A DNA stretch of 64,000 bases, from contig NZ_QEKV01000002.1 of the NCBI RefSeq assembly GCF_003096635.1, forward strand, positions 95,388 to 159,387, read 5' to 3'. The notes beneath the pieces are model-generated. The model was given only the letters and a program-made list of their open reading frames with translations. It did not search any database and was not told where the DNA came from. How positions within the stretch are numbered: the first letter of the stretch is position 1; each line of letters starts with the position of its first letter. Shown here one piece after another: positions 17,970-55,733 of the stretch. Both the position numbers and the translations under genes were made by a program. This DNA comes from Ezakiella coagulans. Its GTDB lineage: Bacteria > Bacillota > Clostridia > Tissierellales > Peptoniphilaceae.

Positions 17970-17999
17970 ATGTTGACTTTTTAATTTGTTTGTAATATT

Positions 18000-18220
18000 A
18001 TATTAGTGAAGAGATATTTAGCGATTACGCACAAGGAATCCGGTTAGAATCCGGAACAGCTACCTCTACTGTATTTAAGTAAGATTCGATTACATGCCAC
18101 TTAACGGGAAGGCGATCGAATTTGAAGCTTATAAGTCAGGATACTTGAAATGTCTCAAAATATTTTCGGGTTAGGAAGGTATGACTGTTTATGGAACCCG
18201 CGAATATACGCGGTTTTTTT
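18000..18220 (+). ncRNA. Cobalamin riboswitch with terminator platform
   Basis: Conserved parts of the B12 riboswitch are readable: GGAATCCGGTTAGAATCCGG followed by AACAGCTACC, then GCCACT, GGGAAGGC, and the B12 box AAGTCAGGATAC at about 18135-18147. The terminator CCGCG (18198-18202)/CGCGG (18209-18213) with seven T forms the expression platform. Binding of adenosylcobalamin should stop transcription before the cbiMNQO cobalt transporter. Confidence 0.93.
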
Positions 18221-51118: not shown

Positions 51119-52012
51119 ATGATACTTGAATTTAAAAATTTGTACAAGTCTTATGACAAAAAAGAAGTATTAAAAGGTTTGTCATTCAAGGCGGAGAGCG
51201 GAAGACCGCTTGCGTTTCTCGGAAGAAACGGCGCCGGCAAAACGACAACAATAAGAATACTTATGGACGTAATAAAAAAGGACGGCGGCGAGATTACAAT
51301 CGACGGAGCACCTTTCAGAGCGAAGGATTTTAAAATTGGATATCTTCCTGAGGAAAGAGGAATGTATCAAAAGGTGAATATACTTGAGCAACTGATTTAT
51401 TTTGCGGAATTGAAGGGTTATAATCCGGAGGTTGCGAAGAAATCTGCGAGAGAACTTTTGGAAAGAGTGGGACTTGCGGACTATGAAAAGAGAAAACTCG
51501 AAGTGCTTTCAAAAGGAAACCAACAAAAGGTTCAAATTTCACAGGCACTTTTGGGAAATCCGGACATTATCATTATGGACGAACCTTTTTCAGGGCTCGA
51601 CCCGATAAACTCAAATCTCTTGAAAGAGCTCATTTTGGAAAAAGCAGGCGACAACAAACTCACACTTTTCTCGTCGCACCAAATGGGATATGTGGATGAA
51701 ATCTGTAAGGACATCGCTGTTTTGTCTGACGGAGTTTGCCAAGTGAACGACACCATTGAAAATGTTAAACGCGAACTTGCAGGAAACAAAGTTTATGTAA
51801 TTCCTTTTGAAACGGATTTGAATGAATATTCGGAAATTCTTTCGAAAATGGGATATGAATCGACTATTGAAAAGGAAAGAGTCGTTGTCGATTTGACCGG
51901 AAAAGAAAGGGAAAATTTTTTGCAAGACATTTCAAAGGCGGGACCGGTTGTCGACAGCTACGGACTTTACAAGCCGACACTCTCTGACATTTTCCTAAAA
52001 TATGCGAGGTAG
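51119..52012 (+). CDS. ABC-2 type transporter ATP-binding protein (NatA-like)
   Basis: The 297-residue ATPase has Walker A GRNGAGKTT near residue 37, a Q-loop YLPEERGMYQKV, the signature LSKGNQQKVQISQAL (variant of LSGGQ), Walker B IIIMDEPFSGLDP and switch His in FSSHQM. The C-terminal extension of about 80 residues with a small alpha/beta domain matches the NatA/YhaQ group. ATG 51119 follows AAGGAGGG. It is four bases from its permease partner; the two form an exporter whose substrate (sodium ions or antibiotics in relatives) is unknown. Confidence 0.9.
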   Translation: MILEFKNLYKSYDKKEVLKGLSFKAESGRPLAFLGRNGAGKTTTIRILMDVIKKDGGEITIDGAPFRAKDFKIGYLPEERGMYQKVNILEQLIYFAELKGYNPEVAKKSARELLERVGLADYEKRKLEVLSKGNQQKVQISQALLGNPDIIIMDEPFSGLDPINSNLLKELILEKAGDNKLTLFSSHQMGYVDEICKDIAVLSDGVCQVNDTIENVKRELAGNKVYVIPFETDLNEYSEILSKMGYESTIEKERVVVDLTGKERENFLQDISKAGPVVDSYGLYKPTLSDIFLKYAR

Positions 52013-52016
52013 AAAA

Positions 52017-53216
52017 ATGGGTAAAGTATTTAAATTTGAATTTTTAACGAGTATAAAGAAAAAATCTTTTATAATTTCGGTCGCGATAATGTTTGCAATT
52101 TCACTTCTCATAAGTTTTATTCCGAGTATTATCTCTAAGATTGCAGGAAGCGACGAAGACGATATCATCGGAATCTACTCAACCGAAAATTTTGTGAATA
52201 AAGAATCGGCAGAAGAAAAAACGGGAATGAAATTTGAAAATTTCGATTCTCCGGAAAAACTTGAAGAAGCTGTTAAAGCAGGCGATATTTACGCCGGATA
52301 TGTAATTGCAGGTGACAAGAGGGAGGTCGTAATAAAGACGAGCTCCGTTTCAAATATGGGCAAGCTAGAAGCGGTGAACGAATCGATGTCAGCTCTTGAA
52401 TCTAGCGATTATTTGAGAAATGCGGGAGTCGATGAGAAAATTGTTGAAAAAGCTATAAAAGGAACGAACTTCGAGCCGAAAATCCTCGAAGCTGACGGCG
52501 CAAAGAATTTCTGGCTTGTATATTTGATGCTCATGATTTTATACACGCTTATGATGATGTTTGGAAACCAAGTCGCAATGAGCGTTGCAAGAGAAAAGAG
52601 CGACAGAACTATGGAGCTTTTGATAACCTCGACAAAACCGAAAGACCTCATTAGAGGAAAAGTTTTTGCGACTGCGGTTATAGGCGTGCTTGTTGTTATG
52701 GTGCTTGTCGTCGGACTGTTCATCGGAACAAAATTTGGACCAAAAACGGAAGTTGATTCAACAATTGCACAAGTATTAAAAATAAACATTTCAATCGATC
52801 AATTTGTAGTATCTATGGCATTCTTTATTGTCGGATATATTATGTTCTTGTATCTTTTCGCATGTGCTGCAAGTCTTGTTTCTAAAATCGAAGACCTCGG
52901 AATGGCAATCCAACCGTTGTCGCTCATCTATGTTGCAGGATTTATGATTTCAATGTTCGGCATGAGCAATCCGGGTACAATTCTTAGAATTGCAAGCATA
53001 GTGCCATTTACGAGTCCTTTTGCGATGATCACGAGATACGGCGTGGACTTTGTTCCACAATGGGAATTATTCCTGTCGTTTGGACTTTTGGCTGTATTTA
53101 CAGTTCTTGTGGGTATGCTAGCTGTAAAGATTTACAGATACGGTGCCCTAAACTACGGCACAAAGCCGAAATTCTTTAAAAATATGGTGGCGGCTTTAAA
53201 AAAGAAAAATAATTAA
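52017..53216 (+). CDS. ABC-2 type transporter permease (NatB/YhaP-like)
   Basis: A 399-residue permease with an N-terminal membrane segment (FIISVAIMFAISLLISFIPS), a long extracytoplasmic loop (about residues 40-165) and a C-terminal bundle of five or six membrane segments including EKSDRTMELLITSTKPKDLIRGK, the ABC-2 coupling segment. ATG 52017 follows GAGGTAG at the end of the ATPase gene. It ends in a strong terminator at 53228. Confidence 0.9.
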   Translation: MGKVFKFEFLTSIKKKSFIISVAIMFAISLLISFIPSIISKIAGSDEDDIIGIYSTENFVNKESAEEKTGMKFENFDSPEKLEEAVKAGDIYAGYVIAGDKREVVIKTSSVSNMGKLEAVNESMSALESSDYLRNAGVDEKIVEKAIKGTNFEPKILEADGAKNFWLVYLMLMILYTLMMMFGNQVAMSVAREKSDRTMELLITSTKPKDLIRGKVFATAVIGVLVVMVLVVGLFIGTKFGPKTEVDSTIAQVLKINISIDQFVVSMAFFIVGYIMFLYLFACAASLVSKIEDLGMAIQPLSLIYVAGFMISMFGMSNPGTILRIASIVPFTSPFAMITRYGVDFVPQWELFLSFGLLAVFTVLVGMLAVKIYRYGALNYGTKPKFFKNMVAALKKKNN

Positions 53217-53256: not shown

Positions 53257-53499
53257 AATGAAATTGTATTTGATTTTAATATTTAAAGAGAGAAAAAACT
53301 TTTTTAGTTGTTTTTAAAAGATTTTTCACTAATTTAAAAAAATTTTTTATATTAAATTCAAAAAAAGAAATGTAATTAAAGCTGCATTTATCAACGTTTT
53401 TAGAGTTGGAATTTATTTAAAATTAAAATTATTTAAAAAATTTTAAAAATTTTCTCAAAAAAGTGTTTAGAATCACTTTACTAGGGTATATATATACTA
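53257..53499 (+). promoter_or_regulatory. Very AT-rich stretch and promoter before the ncRNA candidate
   Basis: About 200 bases are almost entirely A and T with repeated A- and T-runs, as in UP-element-rich promoters. A TTTAGA (53466-53471) and TATATA (53489-53494) pair spaced by 17 bases would start transcription near 53500. No reading frame is convincing here. Confidence 0.5.
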
Positions 53500-54085
53500 C
53501 AAAGGAAGATGATGATAAAACTAGAGCACAGATCTAAAAAAATGCCGAGTGCAAAAATAGATATCGTCATTACCTTTATAAAAATATCGTGGCGAAAATT
53601 AACACGAGGGACGCAAAAGTTATTGAGTGAAAGATCACTTCCCGAATTTGAAAGGTCTGTCGAGCAGCCGGGGTAAAGGCCCGGACGAGATCAATTTATA
53701 TTAAATCATTGAGAGGGCAAGAAAATATAACAAGCGTCAAAAGAACCTAAAAAACAAAATAGACTTTATTTCAAACATTGAATATTCAGTGGCTTTTGGA
53801 ACAGCGATATGCTTGAAGTGATGAAATAAGTCAGGGCGAAGAATTTAAAACATTGCAAGGATCACCGAAAAGCGAGAAGAGAGTAAGGTACAATAGTGAA
53901 TTTAGAAAAACCGAAAATCAAATCGAGCGTAAGGGAAGACGTAACTAACTTGAACACGGTTGGAGCGTTAAAAAGTAAAATTTGTGTAGAAAGGAGAATA
54001 ACGAATACTGTGATTGAACCTAAACATTTTAAACGCCACGAGTAACTCCCGAGAGTTTATGATTAAACGAATCTCGGGAGTTTTT
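53500..54085 (+). ncRNA. Large structured RNA candidate, unassigned (ROOL/OLE size class)
   Basis: No long reading frame exists in this roughly 580-base stretch, yet it is purine-rich, less AT-rich than its flanks and full of pairable arms. AAAGGAAGATGATGATA (53501-53517) pairs with TATCGTCATTACCTTT. AGTGA-AAGA-TCACT lies near 53626, and CCGGG-GTAAAGG-CCCGG at 53668-53684. GACTTTATTTCA (53762-53773) pairs with TGAAATAAGTC (53822-53832), enclosing two smaller hairpins. A terminator stem of 11 bp ends it. It is not tmRNA, 6S, SRP RNA or a group I/II intron by the landmarks I know, and it lacks the RNase P type B GAGGAAAGTCC core. Size and ornate structure recall ROOL, GOLLD or OLE RNAs, but I cannot assign it. 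Confidence 0.68.
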
Positions 54086-54086: not shown

Positions 54087-54224
54087 TGTGCAAATATTGA
54101 ATTAATAATGTTTTGATTATTTAGCAAGAAAAACTTTTGGTTCAAATTTTTCAAACCATTTCTATTTGTTGATAATAAATTTTATTTAAATTATAATAAT
54201 ACATATAATATGTGGGGTGATTCT

Positions 54225-55733
54225 GTGGATTTAAACTTATCAAAGACAAGTTATTGTGCAGCGGTTCAATGCCCGAAGATGGTGTGGCTAAGAAACCGAA
54301 AGCCGGAGGTATTTCCTGAGGGGGGAGCGGATGAGTCAGTGCTTGAAACCGGAAGGGAAGTCGGCGAGTTTGCAAAGAAATTATTTGACAATGTGAAAAC
54401 GGTTTCGTTTAATTTTAAACTAAAGATGATAGAAGAAACGACTGCACTCATTCACGAGGAATGCGAATATATTGCGGAGGCATCGTTTCTTTATGATGGG
54501 CTTTTTGCAAGCGTCGACATTTTGCACAATCTAAAAAACGGCGAGGTGGAAATTTACGAGGTGAAGAGTTCGACGTCGATAAAGGATATCTATCTCGACG
54601 ACGTCTCATTTCAACGATATATATTAAAAAAACTCGGATACAAGGTTAAGCGTGTGTGCATTGTTTATATAAATAATGCTTATGTTCGCGTTGGAGAAGT
54701 TGATTTGGGCGAGCTTTTTGTGGTGGAAGATGTGACAGACGAGGCGGAAGCACGCGAAGTGACTGTTGCGGAAAATGTTTTGAGGTTTTACGAGATTTTA
54801 AATTCTGAAGCGGAGCCTGGTATTGAAATTGGAGAACAATGTTTTGCGCCTTATAAGTGCGATTGTTTTAAATATTGCACGAAAAATCTTCCTTCGCCTA
54901 ATGTGTTTGATGTTGCGGGCGCAAGGACTTCCACAAAGTTTAAGTGTTTAAGAAACGGCATTGTATCGTTTGAGGATATATTGCGTGAGAACGCACTTTC
55001 AAAGTCGCAGATGAAGCAAGTTGAGCACGAGGTGAAAGAACTTTCAGATTATATCGAAGAAGATGCGATTCAGGAGTTTATGAAAACACTTTCATATCCG
55101 CTCTATTTTTTGGATTTTGAATCCTATCAACCTGCAATTCCGGCATATCAGAACTCGAAGCCATTCGAGCAAATTGTGTTTCAATATTCGCTTCACTACA
55201 TCGAAGAAGAGGGTGGAGATTTGAAGCACACTGAGTTTTTGGCGTATCCGGGCGAAGATCCGAGAAGAGCACTTGCGGAAAAACTTTGCAAGGACATCCC
55301 GAAAGACGTTTGTACAACCGCATACAATATGGCTTTTGAAAAGACGAGAATAAAATCACTTGCCGCACTTTATCCGGATTTGGCGGGGCATCTTATGAAT
55401 ATACACGACAATATCAAGGACCTGATGGTTCCGTTTCAAAAGAAGCAATATTACAAGAGGGCGATGCAAGGTTCGTACTCCATAAAATATGTATTGCCGG
55501 CACTCTTTCCGAATGAGCCGTCTCTTGATTATCACAATCTCGAAGGCGTACACAACGGAGTTGAGGCATCGGCAACCTTTAAGAGGATGGCGACGATGGA
55601 CGATGAGGAGCTCGAAAACTTCAGAACGCACCTTTTAAATTATTGCGGGCTTGACACATTTGCAATGGTTAAAGTTTGGGAAAGACTGAATGAAGCGATT
55701 GGCGTTTCGGTTAGGACTTATGAAAATAAATAA
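54225..55733 (+). CDS. DUF2779 protein (Cas4/RecB-like plus DnaQ-like nuclease domains)
   Basis: The roughly 502-residue protein starts LNLSKTSYCAAVQCPKMVWLRN, the usual N-terminus of this family. Its first half has a PD-(D/E)XK-like core (VEIYEVKSSTSIKDIYLDDVSFQ in two stretches) and Cys residues in CFAPYKCDCFKYC that could bind an Fe-S cluster as in Cas4. The second half (YFLDFESYQPAIP, YNMAFEKTRIKSL, YCGLDTFAMVKVW) resembles a DnaQ-type exonuclease fold. Biological role is unknown. GTG 54225 after GGGGTGA gives the family start; the ATG at 54210 overlaps that ribosome site. It stands alone, with no CRISPR locus nearby. Confidence 0.82.
   Translation: MDLNLSKTSYCAAVQCPKMVWLRNRKPEVFPEGGADESVLETGREVGEFAKKLFDNVKTVSFNFKLKMIEETTALIHEECEYIAEASFLYDGLFASVDILHNLKNGEVEIYEVKSSTSIKDIYLDDVSFQRYILKKLGYKVKRVCIVYINNAYVRVGEVDLGELFVVEDVTDEAEAREVTVAENVLRFYEILNSEAEPGIEIGEQCFAPYKCDCFKYCTKNLPSPNVFDVAGARTSTKFKCLRNGIVSFEDILRENALSKSQMKQVEHEVKELSDYIEEDAIQEFMKTLSYPLYFLDFESYQPAIPAYQNSKPFEQIVFQYSLHYIEEEGGDLKHTEFLAYPGEDPRRALAEKLCKDIPKDVCTTAYNMAFEKTRIKSLAALYPDLAGHLMNIHDNIKDLMVPFQKKQYYKRAMQGSYSIKYVLPALFPNEPSLDYHNLEGVHNGVEASATFKRMATMDDEELENFRTHLLNYCGLDTFAMVKVWERLNEAIGVSVRTYENK

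What the first reader, a model, noticed from the sequence alone, without database searches (positions are those of the whole stretch)
53500..54085. A roughly 580-nt structured non-coding RNA candidate
A long gene-free stretch has a promoter at its left edge, a strong terminator at its right edge, purine-rich composition and many pairable arms (for example 53762-53773 with 53822-53832, and 53668-53672 with 53680-53684). It lacks the landmarks of tmRNA, RNase P, 6S, SRP RNA and self-splicing introns that I can check by eye. Bacterial RNAs this large are few: OLE, ROOL, GOLLD and a handful of others. It is either a new example of one of these or a new class.
Basis: partly seen in the sequence, partly recalled or inferred. 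Interest (0 to 1): 0.8.

Follow-up and report, generated by a model that had tools for sequence, protein, structure and literature searches.

The report
Stress-induced folded RNA with micro-gene
A stretch that looked gene-free encodes a long folded RNA, apparently switched on by the bacterium's general stress factor, whose two ends are clamped together by a helix that at the same time spells out the second half of a tiny 11-codon gene; the design recurs across a family of human-associated anaerobes and is not in the RNA catalogue searched.

Summary
The candidate is real. At 53465-54085 lies a stand-alone transcription unit with a sigma-B-type promoter (GTTTAG-N13-GGGTAT), about 585 nt of RNA and a strong terminator. 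No Rfam family matches it. Relatives occur in 49 of 130 genomes of the window's family (Ezakiella, Anaerococcus, Lagierella and others), plus two genomes of a second family of the order. The interior drifts almost beyond recognition. Two features do not: a micro-ORF of 11-18 codons just before the terminator, starting M-[IMTV]-E-P-K, and a long helix joining the RNA's 5' end to that ORF's second half. Helix partners change together between species (9 of 14 pairs in Anaerococcus; 0 of 500 shuffles reach the structure's covariation score). None of 52 members has a stop in the ORF's next six codons. The helix starts about 23 nt after the start codon's first base, roughly where an initiating ribosome's front edge should sit. 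Most likely it is a sigma-B-regulon dual RNA whose folded state is coupled to translation of the micro-ORF. Transcription, translation and function are inferred, not shown. The family is new to the sources searched; the kind (dual-function RNA) is known.

The parts
53465..53489 (+). sigma-B-type promoter, GTTTAG (53465-53470), N13, GGGTAT (53484-53489)
   Evidence: published B. subtilis consensus GTTTAA-N15(+/-2)-GGGTAT (PMC9847131, passages)
53500..54085 (+). structured RNA; transcription start inferred near 53496-53500, 3' end at the terminator
53501..53577 (+). predicted 5' stem-loop (AAAGG 53501-53505 with CCTTT 53573-53577); both arm sequences are also present in G004
   Evidence: prediction only for the window (the Anaerococcus 5' hairpin covaries)
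53587..53594 (+). 5' arm of the closing helix, TCGTGGCG
53990..53996 (+). Shine-Dalgarno-like AAAGGAG (13 nt before the start codon: long)
54010..54045 (+). micro-ORF GTG...TAA, M-I-E-P-K-H-F-K-R-H-E (GTG read as M)
   Evidence: relaxed search
54034..54041 (+). 3' arm of the closing helix, CGCCACGA, inside codons 9-11 of the micro-ORF
54045..54085 (+). intrinsic terminator (stem ACTCCCGAGA/TCTCGGGAGT plus GTTTA/TAAAC, then TTTTT); its first base is the last base of the stop codon
   Evidence: not listed by the scan

Best explanation
It is a gene of the general-stress (sigma-B) regulon that makes a stable, folded RNA of about 585 nt with a conserved micro-ORF at its 3' end: a dual-function-type RNA. 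Shown by comparison: the sigma-B-type promoter, the terminator, the 5'-3' closing helix, and an ORF starting M-[IMTV]-E-P-K whose second half forms the 3' strand of that helix. Inferred: under stress sigma-B makes the RNA; a ribosome can start at the GTG because the helix begins only about 23 nt downstream, but translating the remaining 6-13 codons must tear the closing helix open and stops at the terminator's base. Translation of the micro-ORF thus switches the RNA between a closed, protected form (few ribosomes, stress) and an opened form (translation resumed) that is exposed to other partners or to decay. The RNA acts in trans or as a stability/ribosome switch, not as a leader for a downstream gene. 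Whether the short peptide has a job of its own is open.
For: Promoter: the pattern GTTTW..GGGTATATA..ACAA gives 19 hits in 16 of 130 family genomes with 0 reversed-pattern controls; 9 of the 19 are these RNAs, 8 precede protein genes (by eye a hibernation factor, two glutaredoxins, a nitroreductase, general-stress-like proteins and others), 2 are unclear. In the window's own genome a related pattern gives 24 hits against 7 controls; 20 have an ORF downstream, and the 10 of these that I picked by eye as stress-like and gave to Pfam are rubrerythrin, YtxH, a pyridine-nucleotide reductase, flavodoxin, CMD, an anti-sigma-type ATPase, a transglycosylase-associated protein, MsrA-MsrB, DnaJ and AhpC/TSA. 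A STAS - unassigned small protein - sigma-B/F/G gene row is present. Helix: the leader pairs with the ORF's 3' part better than all of 200 dinucleotide shuffles in 32 of 39 members and better than every leader from another genus in 33 of 39 (mean -25.5 against -13.6 kcal/mol). In 13 Anaerococcus RNAs 97.6% of cells pair, 18 pairs change on both sides against 7.8 shuffled, and 9 of 14 closing-helix pairs do so. ORF: a stop in the 6 codons after the motif in 0 of 52 members, against 13 and 26 of 52 in the other two frames; shuffling those 18 nt, one value per group, gives a product of 9e-5 over 18 groups. Of the nine RNAs found by promoter alone, seven keep M-[IM]-E-P-K with changes only at wobble or start positions and the I/M codon; G001/G005 differ. 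A relaxed pattern allowing any codon 2, GAN and AAN gave 27 hits (2 reversed controls), all GAA/GAG and all AAA. Out-of-sample: 3 of 3 newly found members have promoter, helix, ORF and terminator (helix 0, 0 and 9 of 100 shuffles). Independence: the next gene downstream lies on the same strand in 29 and the opposite strand in 22 of 53 loci, no neighbour is common to all genera, and in G004 the RNA points the opposite way relative to the homologous permease. Geometry: helix start median nt 23, middle half 22.75-24.25.
Against: No RNA-seq, ribosome profiling or mutant data. In the window member the helix is short (8 bp, 6 of 200 shuffles as good), and the Shine-Dalgarno lies 13 nt from GTG, which is long. 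Two Ezakiella genomes (G001/G005) carry a diverged start, MRPNK, and two others of the genus (G002, G003) gave no hit. 81 of 130 family genomes have no member by these searches, while 128 of 130 have a sigma-B/F/G match over the curated cut-off. Codons 6-8 drift, which argues against a strongly constrained peptide. Eleven of 50 members lacked the promoter pattern; L070-L072 (g16) have sigma-70-like promoters. Three pairs of genera share a neighbouring gene. The switch mechanism is deduced from geometry alone.
Confidence: 0.5

Rival explanations
1. A micropeptide mRNA: the 11-18 aa peptide is the product, and the long leader and helix only control its synthesis and protect the message.
For: No stop in the six codons after the motif in any of 52 members; conserved M-x-E-P-K and, in 25 of 52, W at position 9; Shine-Dalgarno-like sequence upstream of the start in the members listed.
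Against: After residue 5 the peptide drifts, and the conserved W codon lies at the start of the paired arm, so pairing can explain it. The leader (about 200-690 nt) is very long for a 12-residue peptide.
Confidence: 0.25
2. A purely structural or regulatory non-coding RNA; the ORF is a by-product of a conserved RNA motif and is not translated.
For: Covarying closing helix and a conserved internal hairpin in Anaerococcus; the start-codon region could be a protein- or RNA-binding motif; poor Shine-Dalgarno spacing in the window and in L108/L109.
Against: Frame-specific absence of stops; variation at wobble positions and codon 2 with GAR and AAA kept.
Confidence: 0.17
3. A leader or attenuator for the downstream gene: translation of the micro-ORF changes the terminator and so controls DUF2779 or other genes.
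For: A short ORF directly followed by a terminator is the layout of classic leader-peptide attenuators (recalled).
Against: The next gene lies on the opposite strand in 22 of 53 loci and no downstream gene is common to all genera; in the window a separate sigma-70-like match (11 of 12) lies between the RNA and the DUF2779 gene.
Confidence: 0.04
4. A member of a known large-RNA family (raiA/ModT, OLE, ROOL, GOLLD) too diverged for its model.
For: Similar length class; raiA RNA was not found in the 130 genomes, so a replacement is conceivable; modT deletion lowers the sigma-B regulon in C. difficile (PMC11706538, passages).
Against: cmscan of the window region at E<=10 and of 14 relatives at E<=1 shows none of them. 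In one search no control genome rang either, so absence of raiA is not proven.
Confidence: 0.03

Closest known systems
Dual-function RNAs (RNAIII/hld of S. aureus, SgrS/SgrT, VcdRP; class and VcdRP from PMC8672173, passages; RNAIII and SgrS details recalled)
   Same: One transcript of a few hundred nt that is both a structured RNA and carries a small conserved ORF; independent gene with its own terminator.
   Different: The ORF here is only 11-18 codons, sits at the extreme 3' end against the terminator, and its codons form one strand of the 5'-3' closing helix. No base-pairing target is known.
icaR mRNA of S. aureus (5'-3' UTR pairing; PMC3868564, abstract and outline)
   Same: The 3' end of a transcript pairs with its own 5' region over a long distance.
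   Different: In icaR the 3' UTR covers the Shine-Dalgarno and represses translation; here the helix lies about 23 nt downstream of the start codon, within the ORF, and leaves the start site open.
raiA motif RNA / ModT (RF03072; PMC11706538, start of abstract in listing and passages)
   Same: Abundant structured RNA of Bacillota, linked to sigma-B and stress physiology in C. difficile.
   Different: No RF03072 match in the window or the 130 family genomes (no positive control rang in 60); the term 'open reading frame' does not occur in that paper's main text.
OLE, ROOL and GOLLD RNAs (PMC12286853, start of abstract in listing)
   Same: Length class of several hundred nt (recalled), intergenic, large.

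Membership tests
Rfam large RNAs (OLE, ROOL, GOLLD, raiA, RNase P, 6S, SRP, tmRNA) | match to the family's covariance model | tested here: not met
   window; 14 relatives; ARAGORN, tmRNA; raiA in 130 genomes; no positive control rang
sigma-B regulon | promoter GTTTAA-N15(+/-2)-GGGTAT | tested here: met
   GTTTAG-N13-GGGTAT at 53465-53489; consensus from PMC9847131 (passages); a GTT[TA]..GGGTA match upstream in 39 of 50 members
sigma-B regulon | the genome encodes sigma-B and uses such promoters for stress genes | tested here: met
   128 of 130 family genomes over the SigBFG cut-off
sigma-B regulon | transcription lost in a sigB mutant | not testable with these tools
   needs an experiment
dual-function RNA | conserved small ORF in a structured transcript | tested here: met
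dual-function RNA | the ORF is translated | not testable with these tools
   comparative evidence only
dual-function RNA | the RNA itself regulates by base pairing or protein binding | not tested
   no target search was run; an experiment is needed
leader-peptide attenuator | conserved regulated gene downstream | tested here: not met
structured RNA family | compensatory base changes in homologues | tested here: met
   within Anaerococcus; 39 members, 11 genus labels; weak for the window's own genus

The most novel reading that the evidence does not exclude
A ribosome-gated RNA: a stress-induced RNA whose closing helix is written in the codons of a micro-ORF and placed at the front edge of an initiating ribosome, so that the passage of one ribosome is the switch. 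The RNA reads out whether translation initiation is running (or holds an initiated ribosome against a roadblock of, at the median, 14 uninterrupted pairs) and changes its fold, lifetime or partners accordingly.
Probability: 0.25. Interest if true: 0.85.

Novelty: new variant of a known kind. Interest (0 to 1): 0.68.

Why it matters
It would be an RNA family of human-associated anaerobes (Anaerococcus, Peptoniphilus, Ezakiella and relatives) that is missing from the Rfam copy searched, sitting in a stress regulon whose other members seen here code for proteins. The overlap of one strand of the defining helix with a reading frame is an unusual design with a direct test: keep the pairing and break the frame, or the reverse. 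It also shows why such RNAs escape searches: the interior drifts so fast that blastn gave one clear relative among 100 other genomes, while the two ends are recoverable with a promoter or micro-ORF pattern.

Tried and rejected
Membership in Rfam families: none; the weak hits (SpR08 E 6.2, mir-375 E 2.9; sau-5971 E 0.39, outside the RNA) look like chance.

Blastn as the homologue finder: only G004 gave long matches among 101 genomes. Of the weaker hits, the loci L003-L005 and L011-L031 were checked for a micro-ORF: only L003 and L015 (G010, G047) have one; their 5' match proved real.

Shared sequence motifs in the interior: the best 9-mer over 27 representatives stood 12.3 sequences above background, against 9.7 in one shuffled control; some Anaerococcus-specific words stand out, nothing clear is shared across genera.

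A second ORF upstream coupled to the micro-ORF: not general.

The idea that GUGAUNGAACC pairs with the 3' tail of 16S rRNA (tail sequence recalled): rejected because the fixed G would be a mismatch and several members have AUG, GUGAC or GUGGU instead.

Attenuator for a downstream gene: rejected.

Rows dropped before the counts. Micro-ORF hits with frames over 25-30 residues were dropped as parts of other genes: L051, L078, L106, L111, L113. L110 and L114 do have a stop within six codons (list of 55); they were dropped because another frame there reads as an FtsH-like and a threonyl-tRNA-synthetase-like protein (by eye). Kept in, the count would be 2 of 54. Identical sequences were counted once; its 18 groups are 17 genus labels plus Peptoniphilus duerdenii, assigned by me from the genome handles. 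The search pattern itself fixes the first five codons, so only later codons and the relaxed search speak for coding without bias.

Hits outside the order were judged chance: most have long frames; the seven with frames of 8-20 residues that I examined have no sigma-B-type promoter, and none has a hairpin-plus-T-run terminator, while P. duerdenii has both. Frames shorter than 8 were not examined.

Failures: for L103 a wrong promoter was picked (correct helix -33.7 kcal/mol), and L080's arm lies beyond my 140-nt window (-26.8). They are counted as failures in the k of n given. L073/L074 remain weak; L084 and L088 are each beaten by one foreign leader. An earlier count said 34 of 39 for and a SigBFG homologue in all 130 genomes; the outputs give 32 of 39, and 128 of 130 over the cut-off (the two exceptions, G003 and G021, have weaker matches).

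Structure of the window's own genus from two or three sequences: too few and too diverged (63.5% identity) to be convincing.

The class-level search (391 genomes) used a stricter pattern that also misses most known members, so it bounds spread only loosely.

Literature: searches were aimed at this RNA, its hosts or its class and listed no paper on it (only the listed titles and abstract starts were seen); searches were for comparison. The main text of the microbiome RNA survey PMC8040213 names none of the five taxa I looked for.

Full report
OBSERVATION. Between the ABC-2 permease ORF (52002-53216) and the DUF2779 ORF (54210-55733) lie 993 bases. The promoter is GTTTAG-N13-GGGTAT, which fits the sigma-B consensus GTTTAA-N15(+/-2)-GGGTAT (PMC9847131, passages). 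The + strand folds with z = -2.78 (0 of 100 shuffles), the - strand with z = -2.38 (1 of 100), so energy alone does not decide. Rfam gives nothing in the region at E<=10 except two chance-level hits, and ARAGORN finds no tRNA or tmRNA.

HOMOLOGUES. Blastn over 101 genomes found one clear relative, G004 in the same genus, matching at the two ends only (query 4-134 at 83%, 469-632 at 81%). G004's contig length (293,985) equals that of 'MAG: Ezakiella sp. isolate SUG955', which carries the same micro-ORF, so the window's genus is very probably Ezakiella (inference; taxonomy). A search for the promoter alone gave 19 hits in 16 of 130 family genomes, with 0 for the reversed control. Reading downstream, 9 of the 19 are long RNAs ending in a terminator, 8 are protein genes (a hibernation-factor-like gene, two glutaredoxins, a nitroreductase and others, named by eye), and 2 are unclear. 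The nine RNAs have a micro-ORF just before the terminator, in G001/G005 in a diverged form.

MICRO-ORF. The pattern AAGG-N8..18-RTGATNGARCCNAAA gave 53 hits in 45 of 130 family genomes, against 5 for the reversed control. Two genomes (G104, G048) are chance hits inside longer ORFs. Adding G030 and G058, G013 and G032 and the diverged G001/G005 form gives 49 of 130 genomes with a member, counted by micro-ORF; the helix was not weighed separately for every one. Outside the family the micro-ORF with its helix was confirmed in two genomes of one other family of the order (L108, L109); the wider scans gave no convincing member outside the order. In 52 distinct members (17 genus labels plus P. duerdenii) no stop falls in the six codons after M-x-E-P-K, while the other two frames have one in 13 and 26 of 52 (two dropped chance hits, L110 and L114, do have one). 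ORF lengths are 11-18 aa; start codons are 43 GTG and 9 ATG. Because that pattern fixed some letters, I repeated the search with codon 2 free, GAN and AAN: 27 hits (control 2), all with GAA or GAG and AAA, codon 2 being I, M, T or V. This is what coding predicts. In the window the ORF is 54010-54045, MIEPKHFKRHE.

CLOSING HELIX. The 3' half of the ORF is complementary to a stretch that begins about 20-100 nt after the -10 element. For 39 members with a recognised promoter the pairing beat all of 200 dinucleotide shuffles in 32, and at most 6 of 200 did as well in 37. It beat the leader of every other genus in 33 of 39, mean -25.5 against -13.6 kcal/mol. Of the six that did not, two are artefacts of my search window (L080, L103), two (L073, L074) are truly weak, and two (L084, L088) are beaten by one foreign leader. 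In the Anaerococcus alignment (13 sequences, A1; label inferred from identical loci) the closing helix has 98.9% of cells paired and 9 of 14 pairs with changes on both sides; the whole four-helix structure has covariation score 0.252 against 0.135 (0 of 500 shuffles), and sliding the partners by 1-3 columns drops pairing to 38-49%. The structure was derived from one of these sequences, which favours it over the slid versions. That alignment also shows a covarying 5' hairpin, a nearly invariant internal hairpin and the terminator. The window's own helix is short, TCGTGGCG/CGCCACGA (53587-53594 with 54034-54041): 6 of 200 shuffles do as well, none of 37 foreign leaders does. In the G005 relative the corresponding helix has a different sequence (CGTAGCAAC/GTTGCTACG). 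Three members found later by a different pattern all have promoter, helix, ORF and terminator (helix 0, 0 and 9 of 100 shuffles).

GEOMETRY. The longest paired run starts at nt 23 (median; middle half 22.75-24.25) counted from the first base of the start codon, with a median of 14 uninterrupted pairs. From general knowledge of ribosome footprints (recalled) this is just beyond the front edge of an initiating ribosome, so initiation is possible with the helix closed but elongation is not.

REGULON. The genome of the window has a gene row with a STAS protein, a small protein that had no Pfam match at 1e-4, and a sigma-B/F/G protein; the order resembles rsbV-rsbW-sigB (recalled). 128 of 130 family genomes have a match over the SigBFG cut-off. 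GTTTW..GGGTAT occurs 24 times in the genome against 7 for the control. Twenty of the 24 have an ORF downstream; I chose by eye ten that looked stress-related for Pfam, and they are rubrerythrin, YtxH, a pyridine-nucleotide reductase, flavodoxin, CMD, an anti-sigma-type ATPase, a transglycosylase-associated protein, MsrA-MsrB, DnaJ and AhpC/TSA; the other ten were not scanned and include chance hits. Eleven of 50 members lacked the promoter pattern; for some a near variant or a sigma-70-like promoter is visible.

INDEPENDENCE. Nearest neighbours are often alike within a genus; three pairs of genera (g31/g19, g5/g14, g29/g17) share one, and none is common to all. The next gene downstream is on the same strand in 29 and the opposite strand in 22 of 53 loci. 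In G004 the RNA lies on the opposite strand relative to the homologous ABC permease. Some genomes have several copies, for example three in G053. This speaks against a cis-acting leader.

MECHANISM. Shown by comparison: promoter type, terminator, reading frame, helix. Inferred: transcription by sigma-B, translation, and the coupling of the two. I favour a dual-function-type RNA whose closed or open state depends on translation of the micro-ORF, because the first five codons are conserved, later codons drift under a pairing constraint, and helix position relative to the start codon is held near constant. A micropeptide mRNA and an untranslated RNA are the main rivals.

NOVELTY. No Rfam model matches, and five searches of the open-access library aimed at this RNA, its hosts or its class listed no report. 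The kind, a structured RNA with a small ORF, is known; the placement of one helix strand inside the ORF is, as far as I could find, a new variant.

Noticed in passing
window 17981-18166 (+): Cobalamin riboswitch, 66.2 bits, the only Rfam match of the window at gathering score.
   Followed up: no
L043 and L044 (G059 and G014), match at 1501: Two further sigma-B-type promoters in the family drive transcripts that begin with a Shine-Dalgarno-like GAGGTGATTCC and a short ORF starting ATGGG; possibly another stress-induced small gene or RNA.
   Followed up: no
L054:1426-1944:-, about positions 210-264 of the transcript, and the other Anaerococcus members: A nearly invariant internal hairpin, AGAAAAAGUGGUGG...GCCAUCUGACAUUUUUCU, conserved in all 13 aligned Anaerococcus RNAs; a likely binding site. 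I did not recognise it in other genera.
   Followed up: partly
L104 1918 and upstream (G005; G001 alike): In these Ezakiella genomes the variant micro-ORF (MRPNKNDRCYE) is overlapped by the stop of an upstream frame of about 28 codons (ATGA overlap), read by eye.
   Followed up: partly
L090 1692 and 2877 (G053); L081 and L062 (G125): Diverged copies of the RNA within about 1-2 kb of each other.
   Followed up: no
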